Program-made: the position numbers and the translations under genes | The notes under the pieces: generated by a model | Databases searched by the model: none | What the model was told of the DNA's origin: nothing | The model's input: the letters and a program-made list of their open reading frames with translations, nothing else | Origin: Nonomuraea polychroma | GTDB taxonomy: Bacteria > Actinomycetota > Actinomycetes > Streptosporangiales > Streptosporangiaceae | DNA: 64,000 nt | Assembly: GCF_004011505.1 (NCBI RefSeq) | Contig: NZ_SAUN01000001.1 | Location: forward strand, 3,534,001 to 3,598,000 | Reading direction: 5' to 3' | In this document: positions 3,850 through 49,743 of the stretch, piece by piece | Layout: every line of letters starts with the position of its first letter | Numbering within the stretch: position 1 is the stretch's first letter

Positions 3850-4785
3850 TCAGAGCGGGATTGCCCAGTCCGGCGCCCAGGTCCCGGCGGCGCCGTGGCC
3901 GGCCGCCGTGGCGGCGAGGTGGGCGCGGAGGGTGGCCAGCGCGGGGTGGGGGTTGTCGCGGTGCCACAGGAGCGAGTGCGGGTAGACCGGCGTGGGGCCG
4001 ATGACCGGGATGCGGCGCAGGCCGTGGCCGGCGGGCCAGACGAGGCGGGTCTGCGCGCCCATGAAGGTGGCCAGGGCCGGGGTGTCGGCGATGGTGTCGA
4101 GGAGCGCGTCGGAGCCGAAGTTGGGGCCGGTCGCCTCGATGGTCAGGCCGAACTCGGCGACGAGGTCGTCGTAGTAGGCGGCCCATTCGGTTCCGGGGAC
4201 GAGGCCGGGCATCCAGATCCGGTGCCCGGCGAGCTGGGTCAGGGTCACCGAACGGGCGGACGCCAGCGCGTGAGCGGGGCCGGTGAGGAGTTGGAGAGGC
4301 TCGTCGAGCACCCGGACTGACTCAATGTCCTCGGGAAGGGGCCGGCCGGGCATGGCGACGGCGCGGAAGGACGCGTCGATCGCACCGGACCGAATGGCGG
4401 CGAGGGCCGTCTCGATGTCGAACAGCATCACCACGTCGAGGTCGATCTCGGGGTACGCGCGGTGGAAGCCGCGCATCAGGCCCGACGCCGCGCTGCGCGA
4501 GGTGATCATGTCGACGCGCAGCGGACGGCGGCCGGTGCGCACGGACGCGACCGCGCGCTCAGCGACGCGCAGCAACTCGCGGGCGTGGGGCAGGAACGCC
4601 TGCCCGTCGATGGTGAGCTCGGCGCCGCGCGGCGTGCGAGTGAACAGTCGCACGCCGAGGGTGCGCTCCAGCGCGGCGATGCGCTTGGAGACGGCCTGCT
4701 GGGTAACCGCCAGGTCGGCGGCGGCCTCCTGGAACTGCCCCGCGTCGGCGGCGGCGACGAAGGTCCGTATGGTGTCGAGGTCCAT
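3850..4785 (-). CDS. LysR-family transcriptional regulator
   Basis: The protein has 311 residues. It starts MDLDTIRTFVAAADAGQFQEAAADLAVTQQ (first 20 residues MDLDTIRTFVAAADAGQFQE), a classic LysR winged-helix N-terminus, followed by VSKRIAALERTLGVRLFTRT and a substrate-binding domain. It is divergent from the MFS gene at 4921. The 135-bp gap holds an ACAAC-N5-GTTGT repeat, a likely autoregulatory and activation site. The effector is unknown; control of the exporter and the isochorismatase-like gene is inferred from position. It is cargo of the inner transposon. Confidence 0.92.
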   Translation of the reverse strand: MDLDTIRTFVAAADAGQFQEAAADLAVTQQAVSKRIAALERTLGVRLFTRTPRGAELTIDGQAFLPHARELLRVAERAVASVRTGRRPLRVDMITSRSAASGLMRGFHRAYPEIDLDVVMLFDIETALAAIRSGAIDASFRAVAMPGRPLPEDIESVRVLDEPLQLLTGPAHALASARSVTLTQLAGHRIWMPGLVPGTEWAAYYDDLVAEFGLTIEATGPNFGSDALLDTIADTPALATFMGAQTRLVWPAGHGLRRIPVIGPTPVYPHSLLWHRDNPHPALATLRAHLAATAAGHGAAGTWAPDWAIPL

Positions 4786-4804
4786 GCGGACACACCCTAC
4801 GGAT

Positions 4805-4819
4805 ACAACCGTTCGTTGT
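4805..4819. promoter_or_regulatory. putative LysR-type operator
   Basis: ACAAC-CGTTC-GTTGT is a perfect 5-bp dyad with a 5-bp spacer, 19 bp upstream of the LysR start in the divergent intergenic region. This fits the T-N11-A LysR-box style. Confidence 0.5.
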
Positions 4820-4920
4820 GGCTAACGGCCCCGCAGTTGTTTGATGCCCTGGTACGGCGCGCGCTTTGATGCTTGCGATCGCAAATCGGTTGTGCGAGTG
4901 AGTGGCGAGGAGCGTTGGGC

Positions 4921-6165
4921 ATGCGGAGAGGGCACCGGTTGGGGCGGCAGTTCGGGTGGCTCTGGGCAGCGTACGGCACCAGCGCGCTCGGCACGTGGCT
5001 CGCCTTCGGCGCGTTCCCGCTGATCGCGATTCAGGTGCTGCACGCCGGGCCGGCGCAGGTCGCGGCGTTGTCCTCCGTGGGGGCTCTGGCGGGCGCGGCC
5101 GTGGCGGTGCCGCTGGGCCCGTGGGTGGAGTTCCGCCGCAAGCGGCCAGTGCTGATCGGGATGGACCTGGTGCGGTTCGCGGCGCTGCTGACGATCCCCG
5201 CCGCGTTCGCGCTCGGCGTGTTGTCCTTCGTTCAGCTCCTGCTGGTCTCGGTCGTCGTGGCGGCCGCCGACATCACCTTCCGCGCCGCCTCGGGTGCGTA
5301 CCTGAAGACGCTGCTGCCGGCCGAGCACCTGCTCGTCGCCAACGCCCGATTCGAGTCCACCACCTGGACCATCACCATCATCGGACCGCCGCTGGGCGGC
5401 GCCGCAATCGGGCTCCTCGGTCCGGTGGCCACGGTGGTGGCCGACGCGGTCAGCTACCTGCTCTCGGCCCTGGGCATCCGCGCGGCGGGCGGCCAGGAGC
5501 CGCGGCCCGAACGCCGGCCGGCCGCGCGCATGCGGGCCGGGGACCTGCTCGACGGCTGGCGGTACATCCTCGCCGACGCGACGCTGCGTCCGCTGTTCTT
5601 CAACACCGCCCTGTTCAACGGCCTGGTGATGGCCACCGACGCGCTGCTGGCCGTCCTGATGCTCGGCCAGCTCGGGTTCACACCGTGGCAGTACGGCCTC
5701 GCCTTAGCCGCGCCCGCGATCGGCGGGCTGTTCGGTGCGCGGCTGGCCCGACCGCTCGTCACCCGGTTCGGGCAGCACCGGGTCCTGGTCGTGGCCGGGA
5801 CGCTGCGCGCGATCTGGCTCGTCGGGCTGACCCTCGTGGGGCCGCGGACCGGAGGGCTGCTGCTGGTGATGGGCGTCCAGCTCGGGCTGATCTTCTGCTG
5901 CGGGCTCTTCAACCCCGTCTGCGCCACCTACCGTCTCGAGCGCACCGCGCCCGACCGGATCACCCGCACGCTGTCCGCCTGGACGGTGACGACCAAGGCC
6001 TCGACCGCGCTCCGGACGGCCGCATGGGGCGTGCTCGGCGGCCTGCTCGGCCCGCGAACGGCCATCGGCCTGGCCGGCGTGCTCCTGCTGACGACTCCGC
6101 TCCTGCTCCCCCGACGCGCCGCGGCGCCCCTCGCCGAGCCGGACCCAGCACCGAGCCGCGCCTGA
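4921..6165 (+). CDS. MFS transporter (drug-exporter type)
   Basis: About 414 residues from ATG 4921, with GCGAGGAGCG about 8 nt upstream. There are repeated hydrophobic helices and the loop VEFRRKRPVLIGMDLVRF between helices 2 and 3, as in MFS exporters of the enterobactin-exporter/macrolide-efflux (MefA-like) type. It is an inner-membrane protein. It is divergent from LysR and followed after 151 bp by the isochorismatase-like gene, so it is probably in the LysR regulon. An upstream in-frame ATG at 4873 has no comparable ribosome site. The substrate cannot be told from sequence. Confidence 0.88.
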   Translation: MRRGHRLGRQFGWLWAAYGTSALGTWLAFGAFPLIAIQVLHAGPAQVAALSSVGALAGAAVAVPLGPWVEFRRKRPVLIGMDLVRFAALLTIPAAFALGVLSFVQLLLVSVVVAAADITFRAASGAYLKTLLPAEHLLVANARFESTTWTITIIGPPLGGAAIGLLGPVATVVADAVSYLLSALGIRAAGGQEPRPERRPAARMRAGDLLDGWRYILADATLRPLFFNTALFNGLVMATDALLAVLMLGQLGFTPWQYGLALAAPAIGGLFGARLARPLVTRFGQHRVLVVAGTLRAIWLVGLTLVGPRTGGLLLVMGVQLGLIFCCGLFNPVCATYRLERTAPDRITRTLSAWTVTTKASTALRTAAWGVLGGLLGPRTAIGLAGVLLLTTPLLLPRRAAAPLAEPDPAPSRA

Positions 6166-6316
6166 CAACCCCCTCTTCGGAGCGGTTCGCCCCTCCGCGC
6201 ACAGCTCGGAGACGGCCTCCACCGTCACCCAGCGGCACCTCACGACTCACGCCCAACATGCAGGCCCCGGGACGTGATCTCGCGTGTCAGGGCGCCCTCA
6301 TCACCCAAGGAGAGAA

Positions 6317-6949
6317 ATGACCTTCACGACCCCGGCGCTGGACCCCCGGACGGCAGCGCTGCTCGTCTTGGATTACCAGCAGGGAATCCTGGCCTCGCTC
6401 CCCGGTCTGGCCAACCCGGACGCGCTGCTGTCACGGGTGGCCGGCGCCATCGCCGACATGCGAGCCCACGGCGCCACCATCGCCTACGTGCGAGTCGGAT
6501 TCACCGAAGCCGACTGGGCGGCGATCCCGCCGGCCAACAAGACATTCTCCTTCATCGGCCAGCAGCACCTCATGCACCACGAGGAACCTGACACCGCCTT
6601 CCACCATCAACTCGCTCCCGAGCCCGGCGACATCACCGTCCGCAAGACCCGCTACGGCGCCCTGTCCACCACAGACCTCGACCGGCAACTGCGGGATCGC
6701 GGAATCATCACCCTGGTCATCGCCGGCATCACCACCAGCGGTGTCGTACTGTCCACCGTCACCGACGCCGCCGACCGCGACTACCAGCTCTACGTCCTCT
6801 CCGACGGCGTCACCGACCCGGATCCACAGGCCCACCAGAACCTGATGACCAGCATTTTCCCGAGGCTGGCCCACATCATCGACACCGCCGAACTGCGCTC
6901 CCTCCTGCACGAGAGCCATCCCGATCGGGCAAAGAGCGGCACGGCATAA
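6317..6949 (+). CDS. isochorismatase-superfamily protein lacking the nucleophile Cys
   Basis: 210 residues; ATG 6317 follows AAGGAGAG. LVLDYQ (Asp19) and the conserved Lys region (VRKTRYGAL) are present. The motif that normally reads G-x-x-T-D-x-C-V is AGITTSGVVLST, which puts Val143 where the catalytic Cys belongs. A sub-branch of this superfamily carries this change and its activity is uncertain; classical hydrolysis through Cys is not possible. It lies downstream of the MFS gene within the inner transposon and may help detoxify or bind the exporter's substrate (inference). Confidence 0.85.
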   Translation: MTFTTPALDPRTAALLVLDYQQGILASLPGLANPDALLSRVAGAIADMRAHGATIAYVRVGFTEADWAAIPPANKTFSFIGQQHLMHHEEPDTAFHHQLAPEPGDITVRKTRYGALSTTDLDRQLRDRGIITLVIAGITTSGVVLSTVTDAADRDYQLYVLSDGVTDPDPQAHQNLMTSIFPRLAHIIDTAELRSLLHESHPDRAKSGTA

Positions 6950-6985
6950 CCGCCAATGATGATCAGTTACCGTCAGGGGATCGCT

Positions 6986-7017
6986 GTCAGTGACCAGACT
7001 CGGTTCTGGCCACTGAC
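6986..7017 (+). terminator. strong hairpin after the isochorismatase-like gene
   Basis: GTCAGTG-A-CCAGA pairs with TCTGG-C-CACTGAC around a 6-nt loop, 36 bp after the stop. There is no U-run, as is common for actinomycete terminators. Confidence 0.6.
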
Positions 7018-7142
7018 GGATCATGTGGCCATCTCGTTCCCAGAGCATCCTTCCTGCGCGTGAGACCGTACTCGCAGAAATGAGGAGTTCTGACAGATCC
7101 CGACCCGCCACCCGGCAGTGTCCGATTTGTACCTGACCGTCA

Positions 7143-7199
7143 TTCTCACAACCTCTCGCAAAACCGTGTTCTCACAACAAGGCTCGCGGTAGGTTTTGC
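7143..7199. other. res-like recombination site of the inner transposon
   Basis: Directly upstream of the resolvase, TTCTCACAAC is repeated directly (7143-7152, 7169-7178), and GCAAAACC (7158-7165) faces GGTTTTGC (7192-7199). Paired subsites beside a resolvase start are the expected res arrangement; this is not otherwise proven. Confidence 0.5.
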
Positions 7200-7202
7200 A
7201 AC

Positions 7203-8088
7203 ATGAGCGATCTTGATGACCCGGCGGCCGCGGTTGAGGCGTTCGACTGTCCGACGTGCCAGGCATCGGCGGGCAGCGCCTGCCGGACCCCGGGGTGGGA
7301 AGGTTGCCCCGAAGTACCACACACCGCGCTTCATGCTGGTACCGCAACTGCGGGCCGAGCTGGAGGTGCGCACGCCCGTCGATCGCGGGCCGGGCCGGGC
7401 CTGGGCGGCGGGCCCGGCACGCGAGGCCGCTGTCGCCGGTGCTCGGGTCAGGCCGACCAGGGTCGGCTATGCCCGGTGCAGCACCGTGCAACAGGAACTG
7501 CAGAGCCAACTGGACGCCCTAGAGGCGGCGGGATGCGAGCCGATCTTCTCCGAGAAAATCAGCACGCGCGTGAAGGTGCGGCCGGAGTTCGCCAAGGCCA
7601 TGGACTACGCCCGCACGATCAAGACCGCTGTCCCGCACCAGCGGGTGATCTTCACGGTGCACGAGATGAAGCGCCTGGGCCGCGGCGCGGCCGAGCTGCT
7701 CACCATCGCCGAAGAGCTGCGCCGGGCCGACATCCAGCTGGAGCTGCTGACCGGCCCGTTGCAGGGGGTGTACGACCCGTCCGGGCACGGGGCCGCGCTG
7801 TTCGCGTTCTTCGCCGGGATGGCCGAGTCCGAACGCGAGTACATCCGGGAGAAGTCCCTCGAAGGCCAGGCCTCCGCGCGCGAGCGCGGCCGCCACGGCG
7901 GACGTCCCAAGGTGTTCGACGACGACATGGCGGCCTACGCCCGCAGTCTGCGTGCCCGGGGCGTGCCGGTGCCGGAGATCGCGGCCAAGCTGGTCATCCC
8001 CGCGGGCAAGAACAAGGGCCGGCACCCGTCGCTGGCCAGCGCCTATCGGATGCTGGCCGAGGATGCCGGTCCCGGTCTCGGCGCCTGA
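7203..8088 (+). pseudogene. serine recombinase (resolvase) of the inner transposon, frameshifted in the N-terminal zinc finger
   Basis: ATG 7203 gives MSDLDDPAAAVEAFDCPTCQ then SACRTPGWEG, a CxxC...C finger-like start. At 7290 a CCCCGGGG run shifts the frame. The rest (KVAPKYHTPRF...RVGYARCSTVQQELQSQLDA) continues in the +1 frame to 8088. The catalytic Ser is in GYARCST; MKRLGRGAAEL and the YDPSGHGAALFAFFAGMAE core and a C-terminal HTH follow. Removing one C restores colinearity with the paralogue at 13321-14274. It may still be made from an internal start without the finger, or the extra C may be a sequencing error. Confidence 0.85.
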
Positions 8089-44951: not shown

Positions 44952-45557
44952 TCAGTCGTCCAGGCCGCGGGCGCTGAGCGCCTCCCCCAGCGCATCGGCG
45001 TGCCGCAGCGCGCTGACCACCATCGGCACGGCGAAGGCCCGCAGGCTGCGCTCGACACCCCGGGCCCGCTGGGCCTCCCGTACGCGGGTGGCCAGCTCGG
45101 CCAGCACGGGCACGCTCCGCACGGTCAGCGACAGCAGCAATGACAGCCGGAACGGGTCCAGCCCGGCGAACCTGGCCGGCCGCAGGCACCGTTCCAGCGC
45201 GGCCATCATGGCCGACGTGCGGGTGGTGATCGTGACCAGGCCGGCCAGCGCGACCGCGACCACCACCCGCAGCGTCGTGGACGTCGCGCCCGCCAGATCC
45301 ACGAAGATCCACTGCATGCCGAACAACGCCACGGCGAACCAGCGCACCGGCCGTACCTGCGCCCAGGCCGCCGCCACCCCGACCCGCGAGACCGCGTAGA
45401 GCCCGGCCACCACGGCCGCCGCCCCCGCCAGCGCGAGCGGTGAGCGCAGCACCACCAACACCGTGCACGCGAGCGCGAGCCCGGCCAGCTTGGCGCCTGC
45501 GGGCAGCCGGTGCAGCGGGCTGGCGCCGGGGACGTAGGCGCCGGTGAGCCCGTTCAT
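44952..45557 (-). CDS. bioN: ECF transporter T component, biotin type
   Basis: 201 residues from ATG 45557, overlapping the ATPase stop by 4 nt (ATGA). CbiQ/EcfT family: membrane helices and the coupling motif region LATRVREAQRARGVERSLRA, containing the Ala-Arg-Gly signature that contacts the ATPase. It is last gene of a minus-strand run with bioY, a ligase, a thiolase and the ATPase. With bioY in the run, biotin is the likely substrate. Confidence 0.85.
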   Translation of the reverse strand: MNGLTGAYVPGASPLHRLPAGAKLAGLALACTVLVVLRSPLALAGAAAVVAGLYAVSRVGVAAAWAQVRPVRWFAVALFGMQWIFVDLAGATSTTLRVVVAVALAGLVTITTRTSAMMAALERCLRPARFAGLDPFRLSLLLSLTVRSVPVLAELATRVREAQRARGVERSLRAFAVPMVVSALRHADALGEALSARGLDD

Positions 45558-46228
45558 GACATGAGCTTGCGGTAGTGGCCGATGGCCTCGCCGGGCGTGC
45601 CGTCGGCGACGACTCGGCCCTGGTCCAGCACCAGCACCCGGTCGAAATCGGCCAGCAACGGCAGATCGTGGCTGACCACCACCACCTGCTGGGGCATCTC
45701 CCGCAGCAGGGCGGCGACCTGGCGCGAGTGACGCAGGTCCAGCAACGTGGTCGGCTCGTCCATGACCAGCACGTCCGGCTCCAGCACCATCACCGAGCAC
45801 AACGCGAGCAGCTGCTTCTGCCCGCCGGACAGGTGGTGCGCGGGGTGGTCGGCGTGGCCGGCCAGGCCGTACCTGGCCAGGACGTCCGCCACGCGCCGCT
45901 CGACCTCCTCTCGGGGCAGGCCTTTGCGGCGCAGCGAGAACGCCACGTCCTCTGCCACCGTCGGCATGACGATCTGCGCGTCCGGGTCGGTGAACAGGAA
46001 GCCCACGCCGCGCCTGATCTTCGCGGCGTGGCGGCGGGTGTCCATGCCCAGCACGGTGACGCTGCCCGACGTCGGCATCGCCAGGCCGTTGATCAGGCGG
46101 GCCAGCGTGCTCTTGCCCGAGCCGTTGGCCCCGACCACGCCGACGCGCCGCTCCGGCAGGGAGGCGGTGACGCCGCACAACACGTCCCGCAGGCCGAGGC
46201 GCACGTGCACATCACTGAACTCGATCAC
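45554..46228 (-). CDS. bioM: ECF transporter ATPase, biotin type
   Basis: 224 residues starting VIEFSDVHVRLGLRDVLCGV at GTG 46228. Walker A VGANGSGKSTLARL, signature HLSGGQKQLLAL, Walker B DVLVMDEPTTLLDL, switch His in VVVSHDLPLL; all ABC motifs are intact. Upstream, two further copies of the coding start are found in tandem (46283 and 46331). It powers substrate uptake with BioN and the S component BioY encoded 2.8 kb upstream in the same run. Confidence 0.88.
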   Translation of the reverse strand: MIEFSDVHVRLGLRDVLCGVTASLPERRVGVVGANGSGKSTLARLINGLAMPTSGSVTVLGMDTRRHAAKIRRGVGFLFTDPDAQIVMPTVAEDVAFSLRRKGLPREEVERRVADVLARYGLAGHADHPAHHLSGGQKQLLALCSVMVLEPDVLVMDEPTTLLDLRHSRQVAALLREMPQQVVVVSHDLPLLADFDRVLVLDQGRVVADGTPGEAIGHYRKLMS

Positions 46229-46331
46229 CTCACTCCACCACCCCCAGGCCGAGGCGTACCGGCACGCCGGCGAACTCGATCATCGCCACCCAGCGGCAGA
46301 GGCACAGGTGCATGCCGGCGAACTCGATCAC
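46200..46331 (-). repeat. three tandem copies of the bioM coding start
   Basis: GTG 46331, ATG 46283 and GTG 46228 each begin (A/G)TGATCGAGTTC and encode VIEFAGMHLCLC, MIEFAGVPVRLGLGVV and VIEFSDVHVRLGLRDV. The first two are in frame with each other, forming a 33-codon frame that ends at TGA 46230, just ahead of the true start. Spacings are 48 and 55 bp. Confidence 0.8.
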
Positions 46332-46333
46332 GC

Positions 46334-47611
46334 TCACCTCACCACTTCGAACAGGGCGGCCACGCCGAGGCCGCCGCCGACCGCGGCCGCGGCCAGGCCG
46401 AGCGTTCCCTGCGGGGCGCCGGCGCGGACGAGCCGGGTGAACAGCCTGGTCACCACGACCGCGCCCGTGGCGCCCCACGGATGGCCCAGTGCCAGCGCGC
46501 CGCCGTCCGGGCAGACCCGCTCCCCGTCGGCGCCCAGCGGGTCCAGGCCGAGCGCCTCGGTGACGGCCAGCACCTGCGCCGCGAACGCCTCCACGACCTC
46601 CACCGCGGCGACCCCCGCCACATCCACCCCCGAACGCGCCAGCACCCGGCGTACCGCGGGCACCGGCCCCCACCCGGGCAGCTCGGGATCGCACCCGACG
46701 ACAGACCCGGCCACCAACCGCATCCCCGGCAGGCCCGCGCGCAACCGCTCGGGCACGATGGCCACGGCCGCGGCGCCGTCGCTGACCGGGGAGGAATTAC
46801 CGGCCGTCACTGTACCGCCCGCCACGAACGCCGCAGGCAGCCGGGCCAGCGACGACGGCCGCAGTGGCCGCGGCCGCTGATCGTCACCCCGCCCGCCGAC
46901 CGGGACGATCTCCTCGGCGAACCGGCCCGCCTCGCGGGCGGCCAGCGCGGCGGCGTGGCTGCGGCAGGCGTAGGCGTCCTGCCGCTCGCGGGTGACACCG
47001 CGCGCCGCGGCCAGCGCTTCGGCGGCCGGTCCCATGTCGGGGTCAGGGTGACCGGCGGGCGTGAACGGCGCCCGGCCGTACGGCTCGGCCGCCCCCCGGT
47101 GCGTACGCAGCGGCGCGGTCGAGGCGCTCTCCGCCCCGCCCGCGATCACCAGGTCCGCCTCCCCGGCGCGGACCGCCTGCCCGGCCAGCAGGATCGCGGC
47201 CAGCCCGCTGCCGCACTGCCGGTCCACCGTCACCCCGGGCACCGCGTGACCCAGCCCGGCCGCCAGCGCCGCCACCCTGGCCACGTTGCCGCCGGGACCC
47301 ATGCAGTTGCCCAGCACCACGTCGTCCACCTGGCGTCCGGCGACGTCGCGGGCCACGGCCTCGATCACGGGCGCCGCCAGCAGGTCCACGGTCAGGTTTT
47401 TGAACGCGTGCCCGGCCGTGCCGATCGGGGTCCGACGCGCGGCCACGATGACCGGCTCGTCACCCGTGAGCCGGCGCCGGGTAGGGCGGTCGCTCGTGGG
47501 TTCGCGGTCGGTGCCTGCGGCGGGCGGCCGGTCGCTCGTGGGCTCGCGGTGGATGCCTGCGCCGGTCGGCTGGTCGCCGCCTGCCGGTGCGCCGATGGGT
47601 GTGGCAGCCAT
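46334..47611 (-). CDS. thiolase-family protein with altered active site
   Basis: 425 residues from ATG 47611. Thiolase core from residue 52 (PVIVAARRTPIGTAGHAFKN) with nucleophile Cys133 in DRQCGSG and His377 in LALGHPWGATGA. Two canonical residues are changed: the NEAF Asn is Val340 (EVVEAFAAQ) and the second catalytic Cys is Ala410 (AAAAVGGGLG). Residues 1-51 are a Pro/Arg-rich extension with REPTSDRP twice. Normal acetyl-CoA C-acetyltransferase chemistry is doubtful. It starts one base after the ligase stop, in the biotin-transport operon; a role in pimeloyl-type precursor supply is only a guess. Confidence 0.85.
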   Translation of the reverse strand: MAATPIGAPAGGDQPTGAGIHREPTSDRPPAAGTDREPTSDRPTRRRLTGDEPVIVAARRTPIGTAGHAFKNLTVDLLAAPVIEAVARDVAGRQVDDVVLGNCMGPGGNVARVAALAAGLGHAVPGVTVDRQCGSGLAAILLAGQAVRAGEADLVIAGGAESASTAPLRTHRGAAEPYGRAPFTPAGHPDPDMGPAAEALAAARGVTRERQDAYACRSHAAALAAREAGRFAEEIVPVGGRGDDQRPRPLRPSSLARLPAAFVAGGTVTAGNSSPVSDGAAAVAIVPERLRAGLPGMRLVAGSVVGCDPELPGWGPVPAVRRVLARSGVDVAGVAAVEVVEAFAAQVLAVTEALGLDPLGADGERVCPDGGALALGHPWGATGAVVVTRLFTRLVRAGAPQGTLGLAAAAVGGGLGVAALFEVVR

Positions 47612-47612
47612 G

Positions 47613-48980
47613 TCAGGTCAGCCGCCGGATGTCGGGATCGTCGGCGGCCAGGCGTGCCGCCACCAGGGCGCGCGCGGGCTTGCCCGCCCGGGTGCGCGGC
47701 AGGCTCGGCACCGCGTACCAGCGGCGCGGCCGCTGCGCCACGTCCAGACCGCTCCTGGCCACCGCCTCCAGCAGCGCCCGCGGCGGGGGCCCGCCGCCGT
47801 CGGCCTCCAGGATGGCCGTGACCACCGAGCCCAGCGACGGGTGCGGCGAGCCGATCACCACGATGTCCCCCACGCCGGGCACCTTCCTCAGCACGTCCTC
47901 GACGTCCTCGGGCACGACGGTGGCGCCGCCGGTCTGGATCGCGCCGTCGCCGCGCCCGCGCAGCCGCAACACCTCTCCTTCCCGGTACGGGTGCGCCAGG
48001 TCGCCCACCGTCATCCACCCGTCACCGTCACGCCGCAGCGGACCCGCCGCCCCGCCCAGATATCCCTCGGCCAGCCACGGCGAACGCGCCCACACCTCGC
48101 CCAGCATGCCTCCTGGGCCGGTCCGCACCTCGATCTCGACGCCCGGAAAAGGGTGCAACCCGCCCCCGTCGGCGTCCGCCGCGACGAACGACAGCTCGGT
48201 CGCGCCGTAATACGACACCACCCGCACCCCGGCCCGCTCCGCCGCCGCCCGCCACCGGGGGTCGAGGGCAGCGCCGCCGGCCACGGCCGTACGCAGCGCA
48301 CCCGGCGCGGCGAGCACGGCAGGCAGCAGGTGCGGCACCAGATGCACGACCGTGGCCTGTTCGAGGAACGCGCCCAGCGATCCCGCGGGCCAGCGGCCGG
48401 GCACGACGGCCGTCGCGCCGGTGGCCAGGGCGTGCACGGCCGCGAAGGCGTACAAGGAGGACGACAGCGGCCCAGGGATCAGCACGACGTCGTCACGCCC
48501 GATCCCGGCCAGCTCGTCGAGGTGCGGGAACGACGCCGTCCATGACGCGCGCGTGCGGACGACGGCACGCGGGCGGCCGGTGCTGCCCGAACTGAAGCAC
48601 GCCCACGACCGGTCGCCAGGCCCCGGCACGTGCTCGACGGCGGGACCCGGCACGTACGGCAGCGGCGCGTCGACCAGGACGTCCACCGCCGCCGCGCCGA
48701 TCATCCGAGCCCACCGCCGCCGGTCCCAGGCATGGTCGCCCACCAGCGGCGTGGCACCGGCCAGGTCCGCCGCCAGCACGCTCACCACCAGCGCCACCGG
48801 GTCGGCCACCCCGATCCCCACCAGCGACGCCGGGCTCACACCGCGGCGCAGCAGATGCCGCGCGGCACCGTGGACGTTCTCGGCGAGCTCGCCGTAAGTG
48901 AGCTCGCCGAGCGGCCCGCGCAGCGCCACCCGGCCCGGACGAAGGGCCGCGTGGCGCATGACGTGATCGGCTACCGGCAT
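47613..48980 (-). CDS. acyl-CoA synthetase-like AMP-binding enzyme
   Basis: 455 residues from ATG 48980. ANL-superfamily motifs: P-loop FSSGSTGRPRAVV, YYGATELS, WMTVGDLA, the hinge RGRGDGAIQTGG, and the C-terminal catalytic Lys in LPRTRAGKPAR. It is shorter than FadD enzymes because the N-domain is compact. It activates a carboxylate to acyl-AMP and then a thioester. Placed between bioY and the thiolase, it may activate a dicarboxylate or fatty acid linked to biotin metabolism (inference). Confidence 0.87.
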   Translation of the reverse strand: MPVADHVMRHAALRPGRVALRGPLGELTYGELAENVHGAARHLLRRGVSPASLVGIGVADPVALVVSVLAADLAGATPLVGDHAWDRRRWARMIGAAAVDVLVDAPLPYVPGPAVEHVPGPGDRSWACFSSGSTGRPRAVVRTRASWTASFPHLDELAGIGRDDVVLIPGPLSSSLYAFAAVHALATGATAVVPGRWPAGSLGAFLEQATVVHLVPHLLPAVLAAPGALRTAVAGGAALDPRWRAAAERAGVRVVSYYGATELSFVAADADGGGLHPFPGVEIEVRTGPGGMLGEVWARSPWLAEGYLGGAAGPLRRDGDGWMTVGDLAHPYREGEVLRLRGRGDGAIQTGGATVVPEDVEDVLRKVPGVGDIVVIGSPHPSLGSVVTAILEADGGGPPPRALLEAVARSGLDVAQRPRRWYAVPSLPRTRAGKPARALVAARLAADDPDIRRLT

Positions 48981-49035
48981 GAACCCGCCCCGCCGCCGCT
49001 CTCGGCCGACACTTCCCCGGCCGGATGGGCGCGAG

Positions 49036-49644
49036 TCAATGCATCCTGCCGGCCCGCAGCCGCTCGCGGTATACGGTGGGCACCGCGTCCGGGTAGGCCC
49101 GCTGCGTGCCCCTGACCACGACCGCGGCCAGCACCGCCTTGATCAGGTCACCCGGCACGAACGCGAGGGCGAACCACGCCGTCGTGCCCAGGGACGCCCC
49201 CGTGACCACGGCCTGTACGGGGATCCCGAACAGGTAGACCACCCCGACCCCGCCCGCCAGGCACGCCAGCACGAGCTGGGCGGTCCCCGGGTTGCGGCCG
49301 GCCCGTTCGACGAGCCAGCCGGTCAGGGCGGCCCCGGGGATCCAGCCGATGAGGAATCCGGCCGATGGCCCGGCGAACACGCCCAGGCCGCCGCGCCCGC
49401 CGGCCAGCAGCGGCAGCCCGGCGGCGACCAGCACGAGCAGCACCACGACGGCGAGTGCGGCCCGCCACGTGCCGAGAATCGCGCCCGCCAGCATCACGCC
49501 CAGCGTCTGCAACGTGATCGGCACAGCGTTGCCGAAGACGTTGAACGAGCCCGGCAGCCCGAGCACCGCGATCAGCGCGGCGAACACGGCCACCCTCGCC
49601 AGGTCTCCCGTGGGGAACCTGCGCTTCCTGCCTGCATTCTTCAT
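49036..49644 (-). CDS. bioY: BioY, biotin-specific S component
   Basis: 202 residues from ATG 49644 (MKNAGRKRRFPTGDLARVAV). Six hydrophobic helices and the BioY signature: VPITLQTLGVMLAGAILGTW, then LPLLAGGRGGLGVFAGPSAG followed by FLIGWIPGA. It binds biotin in the membrane and associates with BioM/BioN encoded downstream in the same orientation. The ligase starts 55 bp after its stop, so one transcript is likely. No recognised BioQ-type box is evident upstream. Confidence 0.93.
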   Translation of the reverse strand: MKNAGRKRRFPTGDLARVAVFAALIAVLGLPGSFNVFGNAVPITLQTLGVMLAGAILGTWRAALAVVVLLVLVAAGLPLLAGGRGGLGVFAGPSAGFLIGWIPGAALTGWLVERAGRNPGTAQLVLACLAGGVGVVYLFGIPVQAVVTGASLGTTAWFALAFVPGDLIKAVLAAVVVRGTQRAYPDAVPTVYRERLRAGRMH

Positions 49645-49743
49645 GAGGTCGATCCCACACCAGAACGGCACGCTTCAGTCATGGAGGTATCCCACAACTT
49701 TCCTGTCGATGGTCTGCGAGCGAACGATACCGTCCCGCCGCAC

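What the first reader, a model, noticed from the sequence alone, without database searches (positions are those of the whole stretch)
44952..49644. Biotin-uptake operon carrying an acyl-CoA ligase and an atypical thiolase
bioY, an ANL ligase, a thiolase, bioM and bioN run in one direction with overlaps or short gaps. Known BioMNY systems need only Y, M and N. The thiolase keeps Cys133 and His377 but has Val340 for the NEAF Asn and Ala410 for the second Cys, so Claisen condensation or thiolysis should be impaired. A dedicated route that activates and modifies a biotin precursor or biotin side chain, paired with uptake, would be new.
Basis: partly seen in the sequence, partly recalled or inferred. 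Interest (0 to 1): 0.7.

Follow-up and report, generated by a model that had tools for sequence, protein, structure and literature searches.

The report
Biotin-import operon with modified thiolase enzyme
Soil bacteria that import the vitamin biotin carry, in the same gene cluster, an acid-activating enzyme and a thiolase that has lost a key catalytic residue, which points to an uncharacterised way of recovering biotin from altered forms of the vitamin.

Summary
The five genes are real. On the minus strand the order is bioY, ANL ligase, thiolase, bioM, bioN, found in 24 of 25 genomes of the genus. A ligase-thiolase pair near BioYMN also occurs in other Actinomycetes, in 74 of 80 Arthrobacter-group loci, and in Azospirillum and Sinorhizobium. 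Pairing BioY with an acyl-CoA ligase and a thiolase is not new: papers place yhfT and yhfS in the BirA biotin regulon of Bacillus subtilis and Staphylococcus aureus. I found no paper in the held library giving their role in biotin.

The new result is enzymological. All 149 BioY-type thiolases aligned lack the second catalytic Cys (Ser, Ala or Gly instead); all 27 ordinary ones keep it. The type is one side of one branch (support 100/99). Val for Asn is a lineage-specific change; relatives have Asn, Thr or Met.

Most carriers sampled cannot make biotin: bioB is missing in 27 of 33 class genomes and in the window's complete genome. Pimelate is therefore an unlikely substrate. A few relatives add an enoyl-reductase-like protein and a thioesterase. 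I favour salvage of side-chain-altered biotin through CoA thioesters. No substrate was tested, and the window's lineage may do acyl transfer only.

The parts
49036..49644 (-). bioY, substrate-binding (S) component of the biotin ECF transporter; the only BioY match in the genome
   Evidence: Pfam BioY 120.9 bits; one match in G000
47613..48980 (-). ANL-superfamily acyl-CoA ligase, 455 aa; closest curated family NF005797 (PRK07638), below its cut-off
   Evidence: Lys434 and the SG, YGA.E and GR stretches are invariant in alignment A2 of nine sequences
46334..47611 (-). thiolase-fold protein, 425 aa: Cys133 and His377 kept, Val340 for Asn, Ala410 for the second Cys, Asp190-Pro191 signature
   Evidence: model and fold match to thiolases
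45554..46228 (-). bioM, ATPase of the ECF transporter
   Evidence: Pfam ABC_tran; best NCBIfam TIGR04520, below its cut-off
44952..45557 (-). bioN, transmembrane (T) component
   Evidence: Pfam CbiQ 57.1 bits
49650..49698 (-). conserved upstream element, GTTGTGGGAnnCCTCCATG then TGGTGTGGGATCG; probably promoter or operator, function unknown
   Evidence: upstream alignment of 20 loci of the genus; single exact copy of the first half in the genome

Best explanation
A biotin-acquisition operon with a built-in activation and acyl-transfer step. BioYMN imports biotin-type acids. The ligase turns an imported acid into its CoA thioester. The thiolase-fold enzyme takes the acyl group onto Cys133, helped by His377 and the glycine-rich loop. 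Because most carriers sampled lack bioB, the acid most likely already has the finished biotin ring and differs in its side chain, for example a biotin shortened by beta-oxidation (bisnorbiotin or tetranorbiotin). In the ancestral form, still seen with an MECR-like enoyl-thioester reductase and a 4HBT thioesterase in the same cluster, the simplest reading is a two-carbon extension. Losing the Cys that deprotonates acetyl-CoA suggests condensation with malonyl-CoA, as in ketoacyl synthases; ketoreductase and dehydratase would come from general metabolism, then reduction and hydrolysis give biotin. In the window's lineage the Asn is also lost and that reductase is not found, so acyl transfer through Cys133 may be all that remains. 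Shown: gene content, conservation, residues, clustering on the tree, bioB absence, linked reductase-like and thioesterase-like genes in relatives. Inferred: substrate, direction, product, and that the seven-gene form is ancestral.
For: The cluster recurs across two phyla in several gene orders: Y-L-T-M-N, Y-L-T-N, M-N-Y-L-T, convergent. Second Cys replaced in 149 of 149 BioY-type sequences, kept in 27 of 27 ordinary ones; one side of one branch, 100/99. bioB missing in 27 of 33 carriers in the class, in 23 of 25 genus genomes (one of them 63% complete) and in complete G000. Rhizobium phaseoli CIAT652 (by strain number the source of L169, filed as R. etli CIAT 652) and Sinorhizobium meliloti 1021 (same species as L175) are described as biotin auxotrophs rescued by biotin-synthesis genes (PMC8914248, passages). 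Seven genes on one strand, thioesterase-bioM-bioN-bioY-ligase-thiolase-reductase, in G591, which is of the window's family and lacks bioB; the same seven by homology in Streptantibioticus, Shinella and S. meliloti. The reductase profile matches human MECR at E 6e-50 to 1e-49, with MECR's GxY Tyr aligned. BirA control of yhfT-yhfS fits a role in biotin shortage.
Against: No substrate or product was tested. The window's cluster has no close reductase or thioesterase gene, nor have the other subclade II loci or the 80 Arthrobacter-group loci that I fetched; weak reductase matches (25-40% identity, at window 17.5 kb, in L128 and in L236) are MDR-family relatives. G000 has no reductase orthologue. 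No ketoreductase or dehydratase was seen in the clusters examined. Asn340 became Val, Thr or Met in subclade II, which argues against carbon-carbon bond formation there. Among BioY-positive genomes, lack of bioB is not significantly more frequent with the thiolase (27 of 33) than without it (83 of 123; Fisher p = 0.13), so auxotrophy follows BioY rather than this pair. Six of 33 carriers do have bioB. B. subtilis and S. aureus also make biotin (papers).
Confidence: 0.4

Rival explanations
1. Acyl transfer only. The ligase makes biotinyl-CoA (or a close analogue) and the thiolase-fold protein moves that acyl group from Cys133 to another acceptor (a protein lysine, a small amine or alcohol, or water), for trapping, storing or releasing biotin rather than building carbon chains.
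For: Cys133 and His377 are kept in all 148 BioY-type sequences without a frameshift, while both residues specific to carbon-carbon chemistry are lost in the window's lineage. The enzyme is under purifying selection. No reductase orthologue in the window's genome.
Against: Subclade I keeps Asn and in part carries an enoyl-reductase-like gene and a thioesterase. A biotin protein ligase is already present.
Confidence: 0.28
2. Ordinary fatty-acid support under biotin shortage: when acetyl-CoA carboxylase lacks biotin, the cell activates and processes fatty acids with a dedicated ligase and thiolase; co-regulated with uptake but not acting on biotin.
For: BirA control of yhfT-yhfS in Firmicutes; yhfT is described there as involved in surfactin production, yhfS as a putative acetyl-CoA acetyltransferase. 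Generic family matches are mostly fatty-acid enzymes.
Against: The pair sits between transporter genes of one operon in many families; the genome has eight other thiolase matches at E <= 0.001; the second Cys is lost in every sequence of the type examined, which should spoil beta-oxidation.
Confidence: 0.15
3. Supply of a biotin precursor: the pair makes pimeloyl-CoA from an imported or endogenous diacid for de novo biotin synthesis.
For: B. subtilis and S. aureus combine yhfTS with biotin synthesis; 6 of 33 carriers have bioB; BioZ-type synthases are reported to start biotin synthesis (PMC8024396, start of abstract in a search listing).
Against: No bioB in 27 of 33 carriers, in 23 of 25 genus genomes or in the window's complete genome, so the last step of the known pathway is missing there.
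Confidence: 0.08

Closest known systems
yhfT-yhfS with bioY (BirA regulon of Bacillus subtilis and Staphylococcus aureus)
   Same: acyl-CoA ligase plus thiolase tied to biotin uptake; the ligase's best NCBIfam match is NF005797, and the thiolase's best equivalog match is NF005212, a model that one of 14 control genomes passes (that it is B. subtilis, and that the two models are the YhfT and YhfS families, is inferred)
   Different: window proteins score far below both curated cut-offs (171 vs 518 and 316 vs 498 bits); here the pair is inside a bioYMN operon; regulator unknown. The Firmicutes proteins themselves could not be fetched, so their second Cys is untested
BioYMN / BioMNY ECF biotin transporter
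   Same: all three components adjacent, as in Corynebacterium glutamicum bioYMN (PMC3398298, passages)
   Different: ligase and thiolase genes inserted between Y and M
Biosynthetic and degradative thiolases (Zoogloea PhaA type, FadA)
   Same: fold (Z about 44 to 1wl4, 4n45, 5f0v), nucleophilic Cys and GHP His
   Different: second Cys replaced by Ala, Asn by Val; Asp190-Pro191 signature
Mitochondrial enoyl-thioester reductase MECR (for the linked reductase in relatives, not in the window)
   Same: profile E about 1e-49 to 7ayc, 2vcy and 1zsy, GxY Tyr aligned
   Different: closer to 3gms, a putative NADPH:quinone reductase (4e-74); activity not tested

Membership tests
BioYMN ECF biotin transporter | BioY, ECF ATPase and T component encoded together | tested here: met
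   Pfam BioY, ABC_tran and CbiQ above gathering cut-offs
BioYMN ECF biotin transporter | transports biotin | not testable with these tools
   needs an uptake assay; inferred because it is the only BioY match in a genome without bioB
Thiolase family (TIGR01930) | curated model score | tested here: met
   319.8 vs cut-off 240.55 bits
Catalytically canonical thiolase | nucleophilic Cys and GHP His | tested here: met
   Cys133 and His377
Catalytically canonical thiolase | second Cys (CxGGG) | tested here: not met
   Ala410; 0 of 149 BioY-type sequences have it, 27 of 27 ordinary thiolases do
Catalytically canonical thiolase | Asn of NEAF | tested here: not met
   Val340 in the window; N, T, V or M in relatives
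YhfS family, taken as NF005212 | curated cut-off | tested here: not met
   316.2 vs 498 bits
YhfT family, taken as NF005797 | curated cut-off | tested here: not met
   171 vs 518 bits, though the best of 84 families
yhfT-yhfS biotin-regulon module | genetic linkage to BioY | tested here: met
yhfT-yhfS biotin-regulon module | repression by biotin | not testable with these tools
   no known operator recognised; the upstream element is unique in the genome
ANL acyl-CoA ligase | AMP-binding domains and catalytic Lys | tested here: met
   PF00501 and PF13193; Lys434 invariant in A2; its role as the catalytic Lys is recalled

The most novel reading that the evidence does not exclude
A biotin side-chain repair pathway. 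Bacteria that cannot make biotin import beta-oxidised norbiotins, activate them as CoA thioesters, and re-extend the side chain by two carbons with a thiolase turned into a decarboxylating condensing enzyme, then an MECR-like reductase and a thioesterase, to give biotin. It could also explain the yhfT-yhfS genes of the BirA regulon.
Probability: 0.25. Interest if true: 0.87.

Novelty: new variant of a known kind. Interest (0 to 1): 0.58.

Why it matters
yhfT and yhfS are placed in the BirA biotin regulon by papers, one of which cites Rodionov et al. 2002 for it (that paper itself was not held), and the passages I read in the held library give them no role in biotin metabolism. This work shows that such a pair is a companion of BioYMN in two phyla, that its thiolase has a fixed and testable active-site change, that most sampled carriers lack bioB, and that some relatives add an enoyl-reductase-like protein and a thioesterase. 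Together these suggest a short list of substrates. If it is a salvage route, biotin supply in soil and root communities includes a recycled pool that auxotrophy surveys miss, and some predicted auxotrophs may grow on vitamers now thought useless.

Tried and rejected
Regulation in Alphaproteobacteria: the BioR box TTATMKATAA (recalled) was not found in ten alphaproteobacterial and two actinobacterial loci; with one mismatch there was a single match, at L170 12858, far from the genes. Regulon in the window's genome: the conserved upstream element has one exact copy and two 2-mismatch copies against two control matches, so no regulon. NF005212 alone did not separate this type at phylum level; a profile from BioY-linked sequences did, 33 genomes at 427 bits or more, next 358. 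Auxotrophy as a specific correlate: significant against all 246 genomes (p = 1.6e-4) but not among BioY-positive ones (p = 0.13). bioF was uninformative: all 41 genomes match, none over the cut-off. BioY-type thiolases in viral contigs: 15 pattern matches, none a relative. Replacement of biotin protein ligase by this pair: rejected, BirA is present. Structure: the thiolase model has mean pLDDT 74.9 with weak loops and adds only the fold.
Full report
OBSERVATION. The five genes are present on the minus strand at the stated places: bioY 49036-49644, ligase 47613-48980, thiolase 46334-47611, bioM 45554-46228, bioN 44952-45557. Gaps are 55, 1 and 105 bp, then a 4-bp overlap. Pfam agrees with each call. 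In the alignments to two solved thiolases Val340 falls on the Asn of NEAF and Ala410 on the second Cys.

CONSERVATION IN THE GENUS. The window lies in a one-contig 11.5-Mb genome, G000. The five-gene order is present in 24 of 25 genomes of the genus, G000 included. G019, 63% complete, gave none; G015 carries a thiolase broken by a frameshift; in G017 bioY is cut by a contig end. Nonomuraea gerenzanensis also has the order, so the genus is probably Nonomuraea, which is an inference. dN/dS for the thiolase is 0.13-0.32 in 11 comparisons, in the range of the transporter genes, so the gene is kept for function.

CONSERVATION BEYOND THE GENUS. A profile from nine such thiolases (A1) split 246 class genomes cleanly: 33 score 427 bits or more, the next 358. 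All 33 have BioY. By coordinates 31 have it within about 3 kb; in G498 the fetched stretch ends in a partial bioY beside the ligase; in G030 BioY lies 34 kb away. Of the 33, 11 show Y-L-T-M-N, 17 show Y-L-T-N without bioM, G515 shows Y-L-T up to the contig end, G569 shows Y-T-N without a ligase match, G316 shows Y-T-M-N with a ligase match beyond bioN, G591 has a seven-gene version, and G030 has the ligase-thiolase pair alone. Azospirillum, Shinella, Sinorhizobium and Streptantibioticus have M-N-Y-L-T (the Sinorhizobium ligase, in a stretch without a listed gene, was found). Alloyangia has the pair convergent to bioYNM. Five Rhizobium plasmid loci carry ligase-thiolase without BioY beside it.

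RESIDUES AND PHYLOGENY. In 176 aligned thiolases (147 and 26 distinct sequences of the two kinds), the 149 of this type have Ser (83), Ala (56) or Gly (10) at the second-Cys position, never Cys, and all have Asp-Pro at 190-191. All 27 ordinary thiolases have Cys and Asn; one of them (L072) has Asp-Pro. The nucleophilic Cys is kept in all 149; the GHP His in all but the frameshifted L079. These counts are not independent: 81 rows are Arthrobacter-group (80 loci plus L022, the same locus as L088). Position 340 is Asn in 94, Val in 47, Thr in 6, Met in 1, and unreadable in L079. Asn: Arthrobacter group, Azospirillum, rhizobia, Shinella, Streptantibioticus, G591, G026, G027. Thr: G088, G263, G306, G316, G547, G579. 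Met: Alloyangia. Val: the genus, G437, G496, G534, G549 and family f93. A tree of 61 sequences puts all 41 of the type on one side of one branch (100/99), with two starred subclades; the window is in subclade II. The root is drawn at the midpoint only, so whether the type is a clade is not settled by this tree. One loss of the second Cys and later, repeated loss of Asn is the economical reading.

WHICH ACID. bioB is over its cut-off in 2 of 25 genus genomes (G003, G013) and absent from complete G000. In the class it is missing in 27 of 33 carriers. This disfavours pimelate, glutarate or other precursors as the purpose. The control matters: among BioY-positive genomes without this thiolase 83 of 123 also lack bioB, and the difference is not significant (p = 0.13). 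For the rhizobia, PMC8914248 (passages read) calls R. phaseoli CIAT652 and S. meliloti 1021 biotin auxotrophs and reports rescue by bioBFDAZ genes (for S. meliloti as data not shown). BirA is present in G000, so the pair does not replace the biotin protein ligase.

LINKED ENZYMES. G591, of the window's own family and without bioB, has a seven-gene set on one strand: 4HBT thioesterase, bioM, bioN, bioY, ligase, thiolase, MDR-family reductase. The same seven are found by homology, in other orders, in Streptantibioticus, Shinella and S. meliloti; five Rhizobium loci have reductase, thioesterase, ligase and thiolase. The reductase profile matches mitochondrial enoyl-thioester reductase at E 6e-50 to 1e-49, with the Tyr of the GxY stretch aligned; that this Tyr is catalytic in MECR/Etr1 is recalled. 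The first hit is 3gms, a putative quinone reductase. Within 246 class genomes G591 stands alone (473 bits, next 246); two other carriers, G534 and G306, have only distant matches near 180 bits, away from the cluster. G000 has no orthologue. Fetched subclade II and Arthrobacter-group loci show no close reductase or thioesterase; weak reductase matches occur in L128, in L236 and at window 17.5 kb.

MECHANISM. Established thiolase enzymology (recalled) assigns the second Cys to proton transfer at the alpha carbon and Asn-His to stabilising the enolate, while Cys-His and the glycine loop suffice for acyl transfer. Losing the second Cys should therefore remove ordinary acetyl-CoA condensation and thiolysis. 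Keeping Asn in subclade I, with reductase and thioesterase in part of it, fits a two-carbon extension driven by decarboxylation, as in ketoacyl synthases. The natural biotin derivative that lacks two side-chain carbons is bisnorbiotin (recalled), hence the salvage proposal. In subclade II, the window included, Asn is replaced three ways, so acyl transfer only is a serious rival. I put 0.4 on salvage of side-chain-altered biotin in general and 0.25 on full re-extension.

LITERATURE. PMC6391492, PMC7235819, PMC11089781 and PMC6323116 (passages) place yhfT-yhfS under BirA with bioY; the passages give no biochemical role in biotin, and PMC6323116 calls the yhfT product involved in surfactin production. 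Searches listed no paper, by title and start of abstract, on this pair in actinomycetes or on bacterial re-extension of norbiotin; two searches listed only 20 of 7,176 and 20 of 13,650 matching papers, and the library is partial. Rodionov 2002 is not held.

LIMITS. No Firmicutes sequence was obtained. No activity is shown. The thiolase model is moderate (mean pLDDT 74.9) and only confirms a thiolase fold.

Noticed in passing
window 47488-47562: About 33-bp imperfect direct repeat inside the 5' end of the thiolase gene (peptide REPTSDRP twice); most of the first 48 residues are low-confidence in the model and outside most relatives' matches, so the true start may lie further in.
   Followed up: partly
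window 46230-46335: The stretch between thiolase and bioM encodes two degenerate copies of the start of bioM (VIEFAGMHL.., MIEFAGVPVRLGLG.. before VIEFSDVHVRLGLR..), a small tandem duplication.
   Followed up: no
window 49650-49698, minus strand: Strongly conserved element upstream of bioY in the genus, with a repeated TGTGGGAT; a related form is seen in G437, G496, G534 and G549. One exact copy in the genome.
   Followed up: partly
L213-L226, L228, L230-L232 (family f93): bioY-(ligase)-thiolase-bioN clusters without a bioM match: the transporter ATPase must come from elsewhere.
   Followed up: no
L087 (G010) 4743-6579: A second, plain bioYMN operon without ligase and thiolase matches, in a genome that also has the five-gene form.
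   Followed up: no
L079 (G015) 6182-7311: Thiolase gene split over two frames; real frameshift or assembly error.
   Followed up: no
L168 and L176 (Azospirillum): An MFS transporter gene follows directly after the thiolase.
   Followed up: no
L170 (Alloyangia pacifica plasmid) 7199-7879: A nitroreductase-family gene lies between the ligase-thiolase pair and bioYNM; the thiolase there is very divergent, with MEAY for NEAF.
   Followed up: no
NZ_LT559118.1: The 11.85-Mb Nonomuraea gerenzanensis record is filed as a plasmid; by size it is a chromosome.
   Followed up: no
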